Made by a program: the position numbers and the translations under genes. From the NCBI GenBank assembly GCA_947487165.1, contig CANKWX010000031.1:1-42886 (forward strand): a stretch of 42,886 nt of DNA. The letters are read 5' to 3'. Origin of the DNA: Burkholderiales bacterium (GTDB lineage Bacteria; Pseudomonadota; Gammaproteobacteria; Burkholderiales; Burkholderiaceae_E). Under the pieces are notes generated by a model. It had not been told where the DNA came from, did no database searches, and saw only the letters and a list, made by a program, of their open reading frames with translations. Position 1 is the stretch's first letter, and every line of letters starts with the position of its first letter. Below are positions 26,189 to 32,156 of the stretch, one piece after another.

Positions 26189-26350
26189 CTAGCCTGCGTC
26201 AATCTCCTGCGCGCCCAGCTTGAGCCTGGGAATGAGTTCGCGCCCGTACTCGCTCACATCATTGACTGGATCGAAGCCGCGAATCAGAAACGAGTGGATG
26301 CCCATCCGGTCGTACTTCAGCATGGCATTCAAAGTACATGCAAAACTCGC
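26189..26350 (-). pseudogene. C-terminal remnant of an LLM flavin-dependent oxidoreductase
   Basis: The minus-strand frame encodes LKYDRMGIHSFLIRGFDPVND followed by VSEYGRELIPRLK. This is the usual C-terminal end of SsuD-like luciferase-family monooxygenases (L-x-Y-x-DLG-x2-FLIRG-DP...YGRELIP). The rest of the gene, about 300 residues, is missing: the upstream part of the frame does not resemble the family, and the acyl-CoA dehydrogenase starts 160 bases away. It is a deletion remnant, fused by chance to unrelated codons. Confidence 0.7.
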
Positions 26351-26508
26351 TGTACTGTCGATATCGACCTTGGGACGCTCACCCGGCGATTTCTCGACAC
26401 GCTGTTTGAGCGTCATCAACAAAGTGCGGCACGGCGGGTGCAGCCTGCGCAAATCGATCATAAGCTCAACCGCTGTGCTTGGCACCTCTCGTGCCGCAGG
26501 AGACTCTG

Positions 26509-27759
26509 ATGATCGACTTCTCGCCCAAGGTCCTCGAACTGCGCAGCCAGATCGAGGCCTTCATGGATGCGCATATCTATCCGAACGAACAGCGCTTCTA
26601 TCGCGAGGCCGAAGAGCTCGGCCCCTGGTCGGTCTATCCGGTGGTTGAGGCGCTCAAATCGCTGGCCCGCAAGGAAGGCCTGTGGAACCTCTTTTTGCCG
26701 GCCTCCGAACATGGCGCAGGGCTGAGTAACTGGGACTACGCACCACTGTGCGAAGTGATGGGCCGCTCGCACCTTGCACCCGAAGTCTTCAACTGCTCAG
26801 CACCCGACACCGGCAACATGGAAGTGCTCGCCCGTTATGGCACACCCGAGCAGCAGGAGCGCTGGCTCAGACCGCTTCTGGACGGCGAAATCCGCTCGTG
26901 CTTTGCGATGACCGAGCCTGCGGTGGCCTCGAGCGACGCCACCAACATCGAGTCATCGATCCGGCGCGACGGCGATGAGTACATCGTTAACGGTCACAAG
27001 TGGTACACCACCAATGCCACCGACCCGCGCTGCCGGATCGCGATCTTCATGGGCAAGTCCGACCCGAACCACCCTAACCGGCATCAGCAGCAATCGATGA
27101 TTCTGGTGCCGATGAACACCCCAGGCGTGAAGGTGATTCGCCCGATCGGCGTCTTCGGGTTTTACGGCGTGCCCGACCGCGCCTCAGAAGTTGTCTTCGA
27201 GAATGTGCGGGTGCCGGCCGCCAACATGCTGCTCGGCGAGGGTCGCGGCTTCGAGATTGCACAGGGGCGCCTGGGGCCGGGTCGCATTCATCACTGCATG
27301 CGGCTGATCGGTCTGGCCGAGCGGGCCTTGTCGATGATGATCGACCGGGGCTTGAAGCGCGTGGCCTTTGGCGGGCCGGTGATCAATAACAATGTCTGGT
27401 CGGAGCGAATCGCCGAGTCGCGCATCGCGATCGACCAGGCCCGGCTGCTCACGCTGCAGGCGGCTCACATGATGGACACCGTCGGCAACAAGGCCGCGCG
27501 TTCGCAGATCGCCATGATCAAGGTGGCCGGGCCTGCCATGGCCTGCAAGGTGATCGACTGGGCGATCCAGGCCCATGGTGGCGGGGGCACCAACAACGAC
27601 CTCGGGCTGGCCAGCGCCTACGCCACTGCGCGCCTGCTGCGCCTGGCCGATGGCCCGGATGAAGTGCATCGCAACCAGATCGCCCAGTTGGAAATTCGGC
27701 GGCACCAGAATCGGGCGACACCGCTGCCCGGCTCGTGGACCGAGGTGGCGAGGGACTGA
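26509..27759 (+). CDS. Acyl-CoA dehydrogenase
   Basis: A 416-residue flavoprotein of the ACAD family, oxidising an acyl-CoA to the trans-2-enoyl-CoA. The FAD/substrate signature [19 protein letters not shown] and the following [17 protein letters not shown] are clear. The C-terminal domain has [41 protein letters not shown], where the DGPDEVH segment supplies the flavin-contact and base region seen in the ACAD10/11-like branch. The ATG at 26509 has a GCAGGAG site. The last 213 bases plus the stop and a few bases beyond are repeated at 31267-31483. Confidence 0.92.
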
Positions 27760-27763
27760 GGGC
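27547..27763 (+). repeat. Long direct repeat, copy A (3' end of acyl-CoA dehydrogenase gene)
   Basis: These 217 bp match 31267-31483 with seven substitutions and no gaps (about 97% identity). Copy A is the functional 3' end of the dehydrogenase gene. Five of the seven differences are synonymous. The two copies bracket about 3.5 kb of accessory genes. Confidence 0.92.
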
Positions 27764-27805
27764 GAAGCAGATCGTGAGGAAACGCCGCGGACTCGCGGGT
27801 TTCCA

Positions 27806-28954
27806 TCAACCGGACAGCAGTTCAATGTAGGCTTGGTAGCTATAGCTCCGGTTCTTTTTCTGCCCGGTCATCTCCACCGCAATACCCAGGCCCTCCAGCA
27901 CCTTGACTGCCGCGGTCGCGGTGGGGAAGCTGGTGTCGAGTTGCTGGCGCACGCGTTCGATGGTGAAGCGCGGCATCATCGGCAGCATCTCGAACAGCCG
28001 GTAGCTTGCCGGGCCTGCCTTGGCGGATTGCAGCAAGCGCCTGCGGTCTGTCGCAACAAGGCTGGCGACGGCAATGATGTTTTTCTCCGCATCGACAGCC
28101 GCGGTCACGACACCTTCGAGAAAGAAGCTGACCCAAGACTCCCAATCACCCTCGGTACGGATGGCCGACAGGCGACGGTAATACTCAGATTGGTGTTGCT
28201 TCAAGTAGCCACTGAGATACATCAATGGCTCAGACAGCAATCCCCAATACTCGAACAGCGCAGCAATCAGCAGTCGACCAATGCGTCCGTTGCCGTCGAG
28301 AAAGGGGTGGATGGTTTCAAACTGCGCGTGGATGAGCGCTACCTTTACCATCGGGGGCAAGTCGGTCGACGCTTCATGAATGAAGCGTTCCAGATCTGCC
28401 AGCAGAGTAGAAACCTGCTCCGGAGGCGGTGGCACGAAGACCGCGTTGCCTGGCCGCGTGCCCCCCACCCAGTTCTGCGAGCGGCGCAACTCGCCCGGTT
28501 GCTTGCCTGCACCGCGCACCCCGTCAAGCAGGCGCCGGTGCGCCTCGCACAATAGTCGCACGCTGATGGGCAGCCCTTGGGGGTCGCGCAGTTGATCCTG
28601 CGTCCAGCGGAAAGCGCGGAGGTAGTTGGTGACCTCCTCCACATCATCGGTATTGCTGACTTTGAATCCTGCTTCCTCATCGAACAGGTCGGTCAGTGTG
28701 GCCTGCGTGCCCTCGATCTGGGACGTGAGCAGGGCTTCTTTGCGGATGGCGCTGTACAAGAGCCAATCCACCGATGGCACCAGCCCTGACACACCCGCCA
28801 AACGCGCAAGCGCCAGTTCGGCCTGCCGGTTGAGGTCGGTGAAATCCGCGGGGGACAGGTCCGGAGCAGACGGAGGCAAGGAATGAGGCAGGAATGCACG
28901 CACTGACTCACCCAAGGTCGTGGAAATCAAGTAAGTCCCAGTGGTGCGTGTCAT
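27806..28954 (-). CDS. Fic family protein (AMPylator, self-inhibited type)
   Basis: A 382-residue Fic protein. The catalytic motif HPFLDGNGRIGR (residues 216-227) is intact, and the N-terminal inhibitory helix motif T-S-Q-I-E-G (77-82, [ST]xxxE[GN]) is present, making it a class II, auto-inhibited Fic. GNAVFVPPPPEQV is the flap region. The C-terminal about 90 residues (PMMPRFTIERVRQQLDTSFPTATAAVKVLEGLGIAVEM) form a winged helix typical of this group and may bind DNA. It adds AMP to target proteins; the target is unknown. It lies within the accessory block and has an AT-rich promoter unlike its neighbours. Confidence 0.92.
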   Translation of the reverse strand: MTRTTGTYLISTTLGESVRAFLPHSLPPSAPDLSPADFTDLNRQAELALARLAGVSGLVPSVDWLLYSAIRKEALLTSQIEGTQATLTDLFDEEAGFKVSNTDDVEEVTNYLRAFRWTQDQLRDPQGLPISVRLLCEAHRRLLDGVRGAGKQPGELRRSQNWVGGTRPGNAVFVPPPPEQVSTLLADLERFIHEASTDLPPMVKVALIHAQFETIHPFLDGNGRIGRLLIAALFEYWGLLSEPLMYLSGYLKQHQSEYYRRLSAIRTEGDWESWVSFFLEGVVTAAVDAEKNIIAVASLVATDRRRLLQSAKAGPASYRLFEMLPMMPRFTIERVRQQLDTSFPTATAAVKVLEGLGIAVEMTGQKKNRSYSYQAYIELLSG

Positions 28955-28983
28955 TGAAAGCAGCCTTTAGTCGCCCGCCATCA

Positions 28984-29013
28984 AATTAAACTATTCTTTA
29001 ATTAGATTGGCAA
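28984..29013 (-). promoter_or_regulatory. fic promoter with embedded inverted repeat
   Basis: On the minus strand TTGCCA (29008-29013), a 17-base spacer and TTTAAT (28985-28990) make a strong sigma-70-type promoter; the fic ATG is 31 bases further on. The repeat AATTAAA-ctattc-TTTAATT (28984-29003, perfect 7-bp arms) covers the -10 and half the spacer, so a bound protein would block it. Fic's own winged-helix domain is a candidate. Confidence 0.6.
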
Positions 29014-29045
29014 CGATTAAAGACGGCTTTCCGACCTGCTCAACC

Positions 29046-29305
29046 TGAAACCGGAGAGTAAATTTCAACCGGGGTTCCGTCAGAACCGCGAACCTAGGGG
29101 ACCGTTTGTCCCCAAGGTTTTAACGACGGCTCCTTGATAGACATCGCGCCTGCGTCGATGGCCCCGGCATGCGCCTGAGCAACATTTTCGGTGAACAGCA
29201 CAATTTCCATCCTCAGCGGGGTTTCTGACTGATTCGCCCTGACATAACCGCCTGGCAAATTGGATGCACCAAGCTCATGGGTCGCAAAGGCCAGGGCTGG
29301 CGGCG
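29046..29305 (-). pseudogene. Decayed VOC-family (glyoxalase-like) gene
   Basis: The frame gives LAFATHELGASNLPGGYVRANQSETPLRMEIVL...PSLKPWGQTVP, then a TAG stop. It is clearly homologous to the intact VOC gene at 31547-31939 (about three quarters identical in DNA by eye). The stop replaces the serine of TVSYVRCPDGT, although homologous bases continue after it. The N-terminal 45 or so codons are gone. It is therefore broken at both ends. Confidence 0.82.
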
Positions 29306-29364
29306 CGCGAAGCTCGTTCAACCGCAAGAAGAAAAGGGCTCGACAATTTTCCGCCTCTTGTGAT

Positions 29365-29392
29365 TGGCGGAGGATTACGGAACCGAACCCGC
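29365..29392 (-). pseudogene. Possible tRNA 3'-end remnant
   Basis: On the minus strand TTCGGTT (29381-29387) is followed after exactly the right spacing by an acceptor-like ATCCTCC, a G and CCA (29365-29367), as in a tRNA T-loop to 3' end. The downstream flank ATCACAAG also occurs after the intact tRNA-Ala CCA at 32081. The T-stem does not pair well and nothing of the 5' half is seen. It could be an old attachment-site fragment. Confidence 0.4.
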
Positions 29393-29490
29393 GTCCCAAA
29401 TTTGAAGCGGTGCGTTCGCGCCGTCCTTGAGGACGCGGTTTGGCGCCAAGGAACTTACTTGAATGCCCACACGCAGCATTGATGGAAGCC

Positions 29491-29524
29491 AGAGAAATTT
29501 CTCTATTTTCTGTATTGACAGAAA
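29491..29524 (+). promoter_or_regulatory. Double palindrome and promoter of the GbsR/MarR-like regulator
   Basis: AGAGAAATTTCTCT (29491-29504) is a perfect 14-bp palindrome. TTTCTGT-attg-ACAGAAA (29507-29524) is a second with perfect 7-bp arms. A consensus -35 TTGACA (29515-29520) lies inside the second. A -10-like TATCTT (29537-29542) follows after 16 bases. A protein bound to the second palindrome would cover the -35, so autorepression is likely. Confidence 0.65.
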
Positions 29525-29548
29525 TTAATGAAAGTGTATCTTTCGATC

Positions 29549-30127
29549 ATGAACCCGCGCACCGCCGCCTCCCCAGACGAAGCATCCGCCACGCCCCGCC
29601 TCCCGGCCGTGACTGAACGCTTCGTGCTGCACTGGGGGGAGATGGGTTCTCGCTGGGGCGTGAACCGCACCATGTCGCAGATTCACGCGCTTCTGTTCAT
29701 CACCGGCCGGCCCATGAACGCCGACGAGTTGTGCGAGCAGTTGGGTGCGGCGCGGTCCAATGTCAGCACCTCGCTGCGCGAGTTGCAAGGCTGGGGCCTG
29801 GTCCGAATCGTCCACCTGCTGGGGGACCGACGCGACCATTTCGAGACGTCAGGCGATGTATGGGAATTGCTGCGCACGATCGTGAGGGAACGCAAGCAGC
29901 GAGAGTTCGACCCCACCATCCAGGCGCTGCGCGACTGCCTGGCTCACCCCGAGCTGTCCCGCGAGAGCGCGCTTGCCCGGCAGCGGATCAACGAGACGCT
30001 GGTGCTCATGGAGACCACCTCGGCCTGGACGGAGGAAATGCTGCGCCTGCCGCCCGAGACGCTGGTGAAGATCATGAAGCTGGGCGCGAAGGCCCAGGCC
30101 CTCCTGCGCGGCAAGGGCAAGCCATGA
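29549..30127 (+). CDS. GbsR/MarR-family winged-helix transcriptional regulator
   Basis: A 192-residue regulator of the GbsR type. The conserved opening RFVLHWGEMGSRWGVNRTMSQIHALLFITGRPMNADELCEQLGAARSNVSTSLRELQGWGLVR is a complete winged helix-turn-helix, followed by HLLGDRRDHFETSGDVWELLRTIVRERKQRE and a helical dimerisation tail. Most members repress a nearby membrane or osmoprotection gene. The ATG at 29549 has no ribosome site, and the predicted transcription start falls on or beside it; an ATG at 29528 would lie upstream of the -10. Its operator-like repeat recurs before the next gene. Confidence 0.88.
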   Translation: MNPRTAASPDEASATPRLPAVTERFVLHWGEMGSRWGVNRTMSQIHALLFITGRPMNADELCEQLGAARSNVSTSLRELQGWGLVRIVHLLGDRRDHFETSGDVWELLRTIVRERKQREFDPTIQALRDCLAHPELSRESALARQRINETLVLMETTSAWTEEMLRLPPETLVKIMKLGAKAQALLRGKGKP

Positions 30128-30160
30128 GCCTCAATTTATTTGGCCATATGTTTCGTTTTA

Positions 30161-30176
30161 TTCTGAAATTACAGAA
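30161..30176 (+). promoter_or_regulatory. Second TTCTG-N6-CAGAA palindrome, upstream of the DCC remnant
   Basis: TTCTG-aaatta-CAGAA matches the palindrome before the regulator gene at 11 of 16 identical bases in the arms plus two spacer positions (common pattern TTCTG-N6-CAGAA). It lies 14 bases before the next start codon, which has its own AAGGGAAG ribosome site. This suggests that the regulator also controls the downstream genes. Confidence 0.6.
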
Positions 30177-30189
30177 ATAAAGGGAAGTA

Positions 30190-30571
30190 ATGAATACTCG
30201 AAGCTCCCTGCTCCTGACGGCCTACTACGACGGCCAGTGCGGCCTGTGCAGCGCCGAGATGGGCGCCATGCATGCGCGCGACGCCCTCGGCGATTGGCAC
30301 GGGGGCGTGGATGCGATTGCGCTGCTCTACGCCGCCGTGGGTGCGCCCTGGTTGGCACGCGCATCCGCTCATGCGCCCTGTCACGCGGCGCCTGTACCCT
30401 CGGGTGGTGGCGCATCGCCACACCCTCAGCCGCCTGGGCCTCGATCTGGTGGCGCCACGGGTGCTTCGCCTTTTCGCCAGACGCCACCCGCAGCGACACG
30501 TTCCACATTGCACGCACGGCACTGCCGGCTGGACAGCCGCACGCCGCGGGCCTGCGGCCTGCCCCGCCTGA
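30190..30571 (+). pseudogene. Broken DCC1-like (DUF393) thiol-disulfide protein gene
   Basis: The start LLLTAYYDGQCGLCSAEM is the DCC-family thioredoxin-like motif (D-G-x-C-x2-C). About 45 residues that normally follow are missing, and the frame resumes at GVDAIALLYAAVGAPWLAR. Near 30360 the frame shifts: the family's ending HPLMRPVTRRLYPRVVAHRH...LRLFARRHP is read in the next frame (30362 onward). The gene has thus suffered an internal deletion and a frameshift and is unlikely to work. Confidence 0.78.
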
Positions 30572-30596
30572 AGTCACTCCCCGCCAGGAGAACCGT

Positions 30597-31175
30597 ATGA
30601 GCCAGAACCTCTTCGCCGCGGTGCGGGCTCGCAGACCGCGCCTGGACCGGCTGCTCGCCGTGCTGCGCCAACGCGCTACTTTGCGCACGGTGTGGCGCTT
30701 TGTCTGGCTCGGACCTTGGGTTGGGCTGATGGTAATAATGGTGCCCGCGTTCTTGACCGCGTTCTTGGCCGCGTTCTTGAGCAACTTGCGAGCAATGCCA
30801 CCGCGAGTGGCTGAGCCACTTGGGATTGGGGACCTTATTCGAAGTGCCGATCTCTTTATAACCGGCGCCTACTTTTTGGGCGGGCCGCCCGCCTTGGTGG
30901 CGGGGCTGTTGTTCGCCGCCTGGTATCACGGAGCCACCCGTCCACCCGCCTGGCCCAGACGGGCCGCTCTGGGCGCACTGGCCGGGCTGGGCGGCTGCTT
31001 TGCCGTCGGGGCGTTGGGCGGACTGATGGAGGCACTGGGGGTGCTGAACCGCCCCGGCTTCTTGGTCTGGTGGGAACATTCAGCCAGCCTCGCTCTCTCA
31101 GGCGTTCCGGCGGCAGTGGTGGTAGCGCTGCTGCAGAAGGCCTCAACACCGCCCGACGAGCCCGTGTCGCCATAG
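30597..31175 (+). CDS. Unknown four-helix membrane protein
   Basis: A 192-residue protein that I do not recognise. Four hydrophobic stretches are visible: [62 protein letters not shown] and [16 protein letters not shown]. The N-terminal 40 residues are strongly basic ([21 protein letters not shown]). The ATG at 30597 follows AGGAG. It comes after the DCC-family remnant and may share the regulated promoter at 30161-30176. DCC proteins are often encoded next to small membrane proteins. Three tandem 12-bp units lie in the first membrane segment. Confidence 0.7.
30747..30782 (+). repeat. Three tandem 12-bp units inside the membrane protein gene
   Basis: GCGTTCTTGRSC occurs three times in a row (30747-30758, 30759-30770, 30771-30782). 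It encodes [12 protein letters not shown] in the first membrane helix. The unit is a multiple of three, so gain or loss would change helix length by four residues without breaking the frame. Confidence 0.8.
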
Positions 31176-31266
31176 TCAGCAGGCTTGCACGCGGGTCTTT
31201 ATCAGCCTCGAGGCGGATAACACCAACGACGGCAAGTCGGTTTCAGCCAAGCGACGTTCACCAGGG

Positions 31267-31483
31267 AAGGTGATCGACTGGGCGATCCAGGCCCATGGGG
31301 GCGGCGGCACCAACAACGACCTCGGGCTTGTCAGCGCCTATGCCACTGCGCGCCTGCTGCGCCTGGCCGATGGCCCGGATGAAGTGCATCGCAACCAGAT
31401 CGCCCAGTTGGAAATTCGGCGGCATCAGAATCGGGCGACACCGCTGCCCGGCTCGTGGACCGAGGTGGCGAGGGGCTGAGGGC
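31267..31483 (+). pseudogene. Direct repeat copy B: orphan 3' end of acyl-CoA dehydrogenase gene
   Basis: A 217-bp copy of the 3' end of the acyl-CoA dehydrogenase gene at 27547-27763, reading [40 protein letters not shown] to the stop. It has no start or upstream part. Only two of seven differences change an amino acid (Ala to Val, Asp to Gly). The fragment therefore looks like the end of a homologous gene that was recently under selection, rather than a long-decaying duplicate. Confidence 0.9.
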
Positions 31484-31546
31484 CCGGCGTGCCGCTGGGA
31501 GCTCAGCAGGTCGTCAGTCAACCCGAGGCAGCCTGTCGGGTTTGAC

Positions 31547-31939
31547 TCAGCTCGAAACCGGGGAGCAAATTTCAATCAGGGTTCCATCAGGACACCGGAC
31601 ATAAGACACCGTTTGCCCCCACGGCTTCACCAACGGCGCTTTGATGGACACCGCGCCCGCCTCGATGGCCCTTGCATGCGCGTCGGCCACATTGTCGGTG
31701 ACCAGCGCAATTTCCATTCCAAGCGGTGTGTCCGACTGATTCGCCTTGACATAGCCCCCTGGCAAATTGGCAGCACCAAGCTCATGGGTCGCAAAAGCCA
31801 GCACTGTCGCACCGGTATCCAGCTCGCCATAGTCGCCCGACTCGTGAACGAATCGCCGCCTCAATCCAAAGGCCTTCTCAAAGAATTCGACCGATGCGAG
31901 CACGTCGGGCACATAGACAATGGTGTAGCCGAATTTCAT
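31547..31939 (-). CDS. VOC-family (glyoxalase/bleomycin resistance-like) protein
   Basis: A 130-residue single-chain VOC protein with two beta-alpha-beta-beta-beta modules: MKFGYTIVYVPDVLASVEFFEKAFGLRRRF and, in the second half, MEIALVTDNVADAHARAIEAGAVSIKAPLVKPWGQTVSYVRCPDGTLIEICSP. The final glutamate in IEICSP is at a usual metal-ligand position. The reaction is unknown: isomerase, lyase, dioxygenase or resistance roles all exist. A decayed paralogue lies at 29046-29305. Confidence 0.88.
   Translation of the reverse strand: MKFGYTIVYVPDVLASVEFFEKAFGLRRRFVHESGDYGELDTGATVLAFATHELGAANLPGGYVKANQSDTPLGMEIALVTDNVADAHARAIEAGAVSIKAPLVKPWGQTVSYVRCPDGTLIEICSPVSS

Positions 31940-32080: not shown

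Positions 32081-32156
<76 letters not shown>

What the first reader, a model, noticed from the sequence alone, without database searches (positions are those of the whole stretch)
27547..31483. 3.5-kb accessory block framed by a 217-bp duplicated gene end
The last 217 bp of the acyl-CoA dehydrogenase gene recur at 31267-31483 with seven substitutions and no gaps. Five of these are synonymous, so copy B looks like the end of a related allele that was under selection until recently. The simplest reading is that a segment carrying Fic, a GbsR-type regulator and other genes entered the original dehydrogenase-VOC-tRNA locus. It would have brought or restored a full dehydrogenase and left the old tail behind. 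Homologous allele exchange and an integrative element that restores its target gene are both possible. No integrase was found.
Basis: partly seen in the sequence, partly recalled or inferred. Interest (0 to 1): 0.75.

Follow-up and report, generated by a model that had tools for sequence, protein, structure and literature searches.

The report
Displaced gene end beside phage-defence gene
A bacterial metabolic gene's last 217 bases are repeated 3.7 kb downstream, apparently left behind when a block of foreign genes, including a likely anti-phage gene, was spliced into the chromosome and then swapped between sister species.

Summary
In detail: 27547-27763 recurs at 31267-31483 with seven substitutions and no gaps. 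So an ACAD-Fic-VOC remnant unit is followed by a GbsR-DCC1-membrane operon and then by a Fic-less ACAD tail-VOC-tRNA order. Among same-genus relatives, G003 has uninterrupted ACAD-VOC-tRNA, G002 has Fic but neither operon nor tail copy, and G005 has the whole block with the same breakpoint at 31266/31267, which excludes an assembly artefact. dS between the window and G005 is 0.25-0.37 in four flanking genes but 0.02-0.09 in Fic, GbsR and membrane genes: the block was exchanged after the species split. Fic is SoFic-like (PADLOC E 6.7e-111). Best reading: foreign DNA entered by homology on the ACAD side and a non-homologous join at 31267, displacing the old gene end, then spread by homologous recombination. 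No integrase or transposon ends were found. Side result: close Fic relatives carry AAAG-N4-CTTT sites about 31 bp apart, a candidate self-repression operator. Known kind of event, unusually well resolved.

The parts
26509..27759 (+). acyl-CoA dehydrogenase (ACAD), intact; its 3' end is copy A
   Evidence: Pfam Acyl-CoA_dh_N/M/1; full length also in G003
27547..27763 (+). copy A of the 217-bp repeat
27806..28954 (-). Fic gene, SoFic-like, with HPFLDGNGRIGR in its translation
   Evidence: Pfam Fic_N and Fic; PADLOC SoFic E 6.7e-111; PDB SoFic chains E about 6e-31
28957..29030 (.). three AAAG-N4-CTTT sites (28957-28968, 28988-28999, 29019-29030), 31 bp apart, upstream of fic: candidate operator
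29039..29302 (-). VOC remnant (3' part of a glyoxalase-family gene, broken)
   Evidence: 80% to 31546-31809; groups with the VOC gene of G001
29303..29506 (.). stretch of unknown origin between VOC remnant and GbsR operon; first junction
   Evidence: no second copy in the genome beyond 14-26 bp matches; present in G005; G330 match starts only at 29507
29528..30127 (+). GbsR/MarR-type regulator
   Evidence: MarR_2; 97% identical in G005; 83% DNA match in G330
30190..30600 (+). DCC1-like (DUF393) gene, damaged by deletions; damaged differently in G005
   Evidence: DCC1-like below cut-off; alignment with G005; longer relative in G330
30597..31175 (+). small membrane protein gene, same operon
   Evidence: 3 of 399 genomes of the order match (the window's own, G330, G233); G330 at 61-70%; no Pfam match; membrane nature judged by eye
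31266..31267 (.). non-homologous junction between operon DNA and ACAD tail; same breakpoint in G005
31267..31483 (+). copy B: displaced ACAD 3' end
31547..31939 (-). intact VOC (glyoxalase-family) gene of the Fic-less order
   Evidence: Glyoxalase_2
32081..32156 (-). tRNA-Ala(CGC), right-hand landmark of the locus

Best explanation
The locus is a mosaic of two alleles of one chromosomal region with a foreign operon between them. The likely original order was ACAD-VOC-tRNA-Ala (state seen in G003). A SoFic-type Fic gene with its own promoter array entered between ACAD and VOC (state seen in G002). A GbsR-DCC1-membrane operon became joined to the broken VOC of the Fic allele and to position 31267 in the tail of a Fic-less ACAD allele (seen in the window and G005). 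Inferred mechanism: homology-facilitated illegitimate recombination, in which incoming linear DNA paired with the ACAD side by homology and its far end was joined without homology inside the resident ACAD, pushing the resident gene end, VOC and tRNA downstream. The assembled block then passed between sister species by ordinary homologous recombination in the flanks (indicated by the divergence contrast; direction not shown). Copy B is most likely a non-coding relic.
For: States in relatives: G003 uninterrupted, G002 Fic only, G005 whole block with the same breakpoint. Copy B is followed by Fic-less-type intergenic sequence, copy A by the Fic-linked type. The VOC remnant groups with G001, the intact VOC does not (UFBoot 96), so the two VOC copies are different alleles. 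dS to G005: flanks 0.25-0.37, Fic 0.086, GbsR 0.055, membrane 0.020; pooled Fisher p 2e-23. Fic to G002: dS 0.084 against 0.27-0.38 in flanks. Copies A and B differ at 5 of about 54 synonymous sites, like the block (p 0.36) and less than the flanks (p 0.013). The operon has a relative with a longer DCC1 gene in G330, another family. No shared 7-mers at the ends compared; no phage record; 133 plasmid records match, none over 80% of the block, the 15 listed only at a Fic gene.
Against: No genome with only one of the two junctions was found, so the donor is unseen and the order of the joins is open. G002 may have lost the operon rather than never had it. Microhomology at the joints could not be tested. 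Grouping of copy A, copy B and G005B is weakly supported (UFBoot 43-46; G002 with G005A 86). ACAD itself has intermediate dS (0.214 to G005, 0.160 to G002), and some flank windows reach 95-96% identity to G005, so the contrast is not a clean step. Low dS could partly reflect different mutation or constraint. The window ACAD is intact while G005 and G001 share one identical 5' deletion and G002 shares a second deletion with G005 (resting on 22 bases at the G002 contig end), so at least one further exchange is needed that this account does not specify.
Confidence: 0.58

Rival explanations
1. The 217-bp direct repeats let RecA excise a 3,720-bp circle (Fic, VOC remnant, operon, one tail), and such circles integrate by a single crossover into any ACAD tail, rebuilding a full ACAD and leaving a second tail: exchange of a cassette by homology alone.
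For: In the window, ACAD tail A is closer to tail B than to the Fic-linked tails of G002 and G005, and the switch to Fic-linked sequence comes only after the stop codon; ACAD is intact here but disrupted in G005 and G002; the A/B divergence matches the age of the block.
Against: No circle or excised form was seen or searched for in reads; G003 could be a never-occupied site. Gene conversion between the copies explains the same tail similarity.
Confidence: 0.15
2. Local tandem duplication of ACAD-VOC, followed by insertion of Fic in one unit, of the operon between the units, and loss of most of the second ACAD.
For: The gene order ACAD-VOC occurs twice in the same direction.
Against: The VOC copies are 80% alike and the remnant groups with another species' allele, whereas the ACAD tails are 97% alike; none of the five genomes with this locus shows a plain tandem array.
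Confidence: 0.15
3. An integrative element that targets the ACAD gene end and restores it.
For: Gene-end duplication is the expected trace; a different stretch of DNA abuts the tRNA-Ala 3' end in G005.
Against: No integrase among the block proteins; the repeats are 217 bp and differ at seven sites where attachment cores are short and identical (recalled); part of the block occurs alone in G002.
Confidence: 0.03
4. Assembly chimera of two strains.
For: The assembly is in 140 contigs with 3.56% contamination.
Against: The same breakpoint at 31266/31267 is in another genome, at 94-95% identity around it.
Confidence: 0.01

Closest known systems
Homology-facilitated illegitimate recombination with displaced 3' gene ends, as proposed for Vibrio cholerae T6SS effector-immunity arrays (PMC5361080, passages read) and shown at low frequency in E. 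coli conjugation (PMC3240628, abstract read)
   Same: One end anchored by homology, other end joined without it; the resident 3' gene end is pushed downstream and survives as an orphan.
   Different: Here the anchor is a metabolic gene, the cargo is a Fic gene plus a small regulator-membrane operon, and the joined block later spread between species. The event itself was not observed.
SoFic anti-phage Fic proteins (PMC12249575: abstract, discussion and passages read)
   Same: Single Fic protein with Fic_N, Fic and a C-terminal domain; PADLOC SoFic model matched over 5-359 of 361.
   Different: NCBIfam SoFic equivalog cut-off not reached (146 against 550 bits); no search for an antitoxin partner like the one in that paper was made; defence activity untested.
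CccR, a Fic-HTH protein that represses its own promoter (PMC9755527, passages read)
   Same: Fic protein with C-terminal HTH; spaced inverted-repeat sites in its own promoter.
   Different: CccR uses two 10-bp inverted repeats 26 bp apart; here three 12-bp palindromes at 31-bp steps; binding here is a prediction.

Membership tests
Homology-facilitated illegitimate recombination product | homology between incoming and resident DNA on one side | tested here: met
   ACAD and its flanks are shared with G003, G002, G005
Homology-facilitated illegitimate recombination product | non-homologous joint on the other side | tested here: met
   31266/31267: upstream of this point G003 and G002 have ACAD, the window and G005 have operon DNA
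Homology-facilitated illegitimate recombination product | short microhomology at the joint between donor and recipient | not testable with these tools
   the donor sequence before the event is not known; only block ends were compared with each other
Integrative element restoring its target gene | integrase or recombinase gene in the block | tested here: not met
   Pfam, PADLOC, NCBIfam scans of block proteins
Integrative element restoring its target gene | short identical direct repeats as attachment core | tested here: not met
   217-bp repeats with seven differences; feature recalled
Transposon or IS-borne block | terminal inverted repeats or target duplications at the ends | tested here: not met
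   no shared 7-mers, direct or inverted, between the 70-base end stretches compared; shorter ones not searched
SoFic anti-phage system | match to the SoFic model with intact Fic motif | tested here: met
   PADLOC PDLC03963 E 6.7e-111; HPFLDGNGRIGR in the translation
SoFic anti-phage system | NCBIfam SoFic equivalog cut-off | tested here: not met
   146.4 bits against 550
SoFic anti-phage system | protection against phage | not testable with these tools
   needs an experiment
Autorepressing Fic-HTH protein | conserved palindromic sites in its own promoter | tested here: met
   17 of 18 relatives of at least 71% identity with a readable N-terminus have two or more sites 30-31 bp apart (8 of these were where the motif was first seen; among the other 10 it is 9); 1 of 36 below 50% do
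Autorepressing Fic-HTH protein | protein binds the sites | not testable with these tools
   needs EMSA or footprinting

The most novel reading that the evidence does not exclude
The block is a homology-flanked defence cassette: its 217-bp gene-end repeats allow RecA-driven excision and single-crossover integration into any related ACAD gene end, restoring the gene each time without an integrase, while the SoFic-like gene it carries keeps itself silent through a three-site operator array.
Probability: 0.13. Interest if true: 0.6.

Novelty: new member of a known kind. Interest (0 to 1): 0.36.

Why it matters
It gives a comparative example (uninterrupted, Fic only, whole block) of how a likely anti-phage gene can enter and spread between sister species without a mobile element's own machinery, leaving a recognisable gene-end scar. 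The conserved promoter array makes a concrete, cheap test of self-repression in SoFic-type proteins possible; a 2023 paper states that DNA binding by SoFic had not been shown (PMC10628234, passage read).

Tried and rejected
Integrative element: no integrase, no short core repeat. Transposon: no shared 7-mers at the ends compared. Assembly chimera: refuted by G005. A tRNA fragment at about 29362-29400, suspected by eye as an attachment trace: no Rfam match there at E up to 1 and no second copy in the genome beyond 14-26 bp matches; dropped. A 6-bp CCAGGG seen by eye near both junctions: too short to weigh; dropped. Import of the window's ACAD from a G003-like donor: ACAD dS to G003 is 0.294 against 0.42 in one flanking gene, not clearly lower; not claimed. 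Phage or plasmid vehicle: phage records gave no match; 133 plasmid records matched, none covering 80% of the block; 4 of the 133 matched at 80-90% identity but are not among the 15 listed, which match only at a Fic gene at about 64%. Viral contigs: 22 loci with Fic relatives, used only for the promoter test. The ACAD scan of genome contigs kept 80 of at least 595 loci (61-78% protein identity); not analysed further. A first upstream alignment was unreadable and was replaced; L170 (N-terminus not covered) was dropped before the counts. A DNA fold of the promoter array was more stable than all 200 shuffles (z -4.29), as expected from inverted repeats; not used further.
Full report
What is there. 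The 217-bp repeat is real: 27547-27763 and 31267-31483, 97% identical, ungapped, seven substitutions, five synonymous. This is the VOC (glyoxalase-family) gene: intact on the right, a broken remnant on the left. Left to right the locus is ACAD (intact), Fic (minus), VOC remnant (minus), GbsR-type regulator, damaged DCC1-like gene, small membrane protein gene, ACAD tail, VOC (minus), tRNA-Ala(CGC) (minus). So there are two versions of ACAD-VOC: a left one with Fic between the genes and a right one without Fic and without the front of ACAD, separated by a regulator operon.

Relatives. The genus search covered 12 genomes, the window's own included. In G003 the order is uninterrupted: intact ACAD directly followed by VOC and tRNA. 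In G002, ACAD (3' part at the contig start, with a frame break) is followed by Fic, VOC and tRNA, with neither the operon nor a second tail. In G005, a deleted ACAD is followed by Fic (64 bp missing), the VOC remnant, GbsR, DCC1, the membrane gene, the same breakpoint as at 31266/31267, and 142 bp of copy B, after which homology stops 140 bases from the contig end; the last letters look by eye like the start of an IS3-type orfA (not tested). In G001, ACAD is reduced to pieces and VOC and tRNA follow without Fic. In the other seven genomes no ACAD-VOC order was seen beside tRNA-Ala; I fetched the tRNA surroundings in six of these seven (not G008; in G004 the contig ends 0.6 kb beyond) and found only matches to the tRNA and to flanks of the window. 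At family level, 10 of 74 genomes gave any match to 29303-31266, and only the window's genome and G005 gave long ones at 90% or more.

Two cargoes. G002 shows Fic in this place without the operon. That is either an intermediate or a later loss of the operon by recombination between the two VOC copies; the data do not decide. Independent support for separate origins: (399 genomes of the order) the genomes with a listed match to both parts, G051, G413 and G337, have Fic and GbsR at different places (other contigs, or 16-172 kb apart), and G330 has the operon matches without a listed Fic match. In G330, GbsR, a longer DCC1 gene and membrane genes lie together beside a gene that reads as guaA (named by eye); DNA identity is 82-83% over GbsR and DCC1 parts. 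In the window and in G005 the DCC1 gene is damaged in different ways. The Fic unit has DNA relatives in other families: six of them (G039, G051, G297, G028, G100, G274; G028 is of the window's family) align up to 29030-29031, the outer end of the promoter array, and G413 to 29023; others stop earlier. In G039 Fic lies beside tRNA-Lys, in G051 and G297 beside tmRNA (3 of 7 loci scanned).

Timing. Synonymous divergence between the window species and G005 is 0.303, 0.251, 0.298 and 0.370 in four flanking genes but 0.086 in Fic, 0.055 in GbsR and 0.020 in the membrane gene. Pooled: 33 of 573 synonymous sites differ in the block against 282 of 1177 in the flanks, Fisher p 2e-23. Fic against G002 gives the same picture, 0.084 against 0.27-0.38 in the flanks. 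ACAD is intermediate (0.214 to G005, 0.160 to G002). In 250-base steps, identity to G005 is 92.5-98.7% from 27750 to 31250 and 78.8-96.4% outside, so single flank windows overlap the block's range. The block, or parts of it, most likely moved between these species after they had split. Copies A and B differ at 5 of about 54 synonymous sites, like the block (p 0.36) and less than the flanks (p 0.013). The flank trees disagree about the order of the three species (G002 with G005 on the left, UFBoot 100; G002 outside the window and G005 on the right, UFBoot 95), which fits frequent exchange.

Which part is foreign. The VOC remnant and its G005 counterpart group with the VOC of G001, apart from the intact window VOC, G002 and G003 (UFBoot 96); 226 of 261 positions match G001 but only 212 of 264 match the intact copy. 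The ACAD tails of G002 and G005 (copy A position) share marker letters that neither window copy has; the window's tail A is closer to tail B (5 of 142 different) than to G005's tail A (9 of 140). The tree support for this is weak (43-46). The Fic-linked sequence starts only after the window ACAD's stop codon. G001 and G005 share one identical 5' deletion in ACAD, and G002 and G005 share another. The intact ACAD of the window was thus kept or regained by a further exchange. Whether copy B arose in the window's lineage and passed to G005, or the other way, is open.

Mechanism. Shown: the uninterrupted, Fic-only and full states; the shared breakpoint; the lower divergence of the block. Inferred: that the operon came in with a homologous anchor on the ACAD side and a non-homologous join at 31267, displacing the old gene end. 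This is the reasoning published for displaced gene ends in T6SS clusters (PMC5361080, passages read); the process has been measured as rare in E. coli conjugation (PMC3240628, abstract read). A circle formed between the repeats is a live rival; RecA recombination between repeats that duplicates and resolves a chromosomal region is documented in Burkholderia thailandensis at 208.6 kb scale (PMC9946442, outline and abstract read).

The Fic gene. It matches the PADLOC SoFic model over nearly its full length (E 6.7e-111). In the PDB its best match is a Fic-domain protein (7cb8, E 1.8e-35), followed among others by SoFic chains (3eqx, 3zcn, E about 6e-31) over residues 45-374, C-terminal domain included. 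It does not reach the NCBIfam SoFic equivalog cut-off. I call it SoFic-like. SoFic is described as an anti-phage protein that acts by AMPylation (PMC12249575, abstract and discussion read). Upstream of it are three sites of the form AAAG-N4-CTTT at 28957, 28988 and 29019. The only two perfect matches in the 42,886-base window are the outer two; ten places reach at least 7 of 8 letters, these three included. Of Fic relatives with at least 71% protein identity and a readable N-terminus, 17 of 18 have two or more such sites 30-31 bp apart (13 of 14, 4 of 4). Eight of the 18 are the loci in which I first saw the motif, so the independent count is 9 of 10. The exception, L175, has only about 80 bp upstream. 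Of two relatives at 50-52%, one has the pair. Below 50%, 1 of 36 has the pair (1 of 23, 0 of 13, three of the latter probably near-identical); five further viral loci lacked the N-terminus and were not counted. Over all loci, 48 sites were found where shuffles gave 3.07 (39 loci) and 14 where shuffles gave 2.0 (17 loci). A Fic-HTH protein that represses its own promoter through two spaced inverted repeats is known (CccR, PMC9755527, passages read), and a 2023 paper says that DNA binding had not been demonstrated for SoFic (PMC10628234, passage read). My searches for a described operator of SoFic listed none; they cover only open-licence papers, and's 1,035 papers I saw 12.

Verdict. A genuine, well-resolved scar of gene exchange carrying a likely defence gene; the kind of event is known. 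Interest moderate.

Noticed in passing
window 28957-29030: Array of three AAAG-N4-CTTT palindromes at 31-bp steps upstream of fic, conserved in a subclade of SoFic-like genes across families and in viral contigs; candidate autorepression operator.
   Followed up: partly
window 26189-26403: C-terminal remnant of a flavin-dependent oxidoreductase-like gene lies close to the upstream region of ACAD; in G005 this gene and two others (about 3 kb) lie here, so the window probably lost them. Names are by eye from translations.
   Followed up: partly
L142 1-6840 (G005): Homology to the window stops at the tRNA-Ala(CGC) 3' end; at least 6.8 kb of DNA without a match to the window follows, including a gene with a HELGH motif (by eye). 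Looks like a separate island at this tRNA.
   Followed up: no
L009 (G039), L013 (G051), L164 (G297): Fic relatives of this window lie next to tRNA-Lys, tmRNA and tmRNA genes (3 of 7 loci scanned).
   Followed up: no
L115 1753-2292 (G002) and L116 5522-6062 (G003): VOC-to-tRNA stretch is 528 of 540 identical between G002 and G003 although their left flanks differ by about 14%: another sign of allele exchange here.
   Followed up: partly
L117 1-140 (G005): After 142 bp of copy B the contig runs into letters that resemble, by eye, an IS3-type orfA start, and ends.
   Followed up: no
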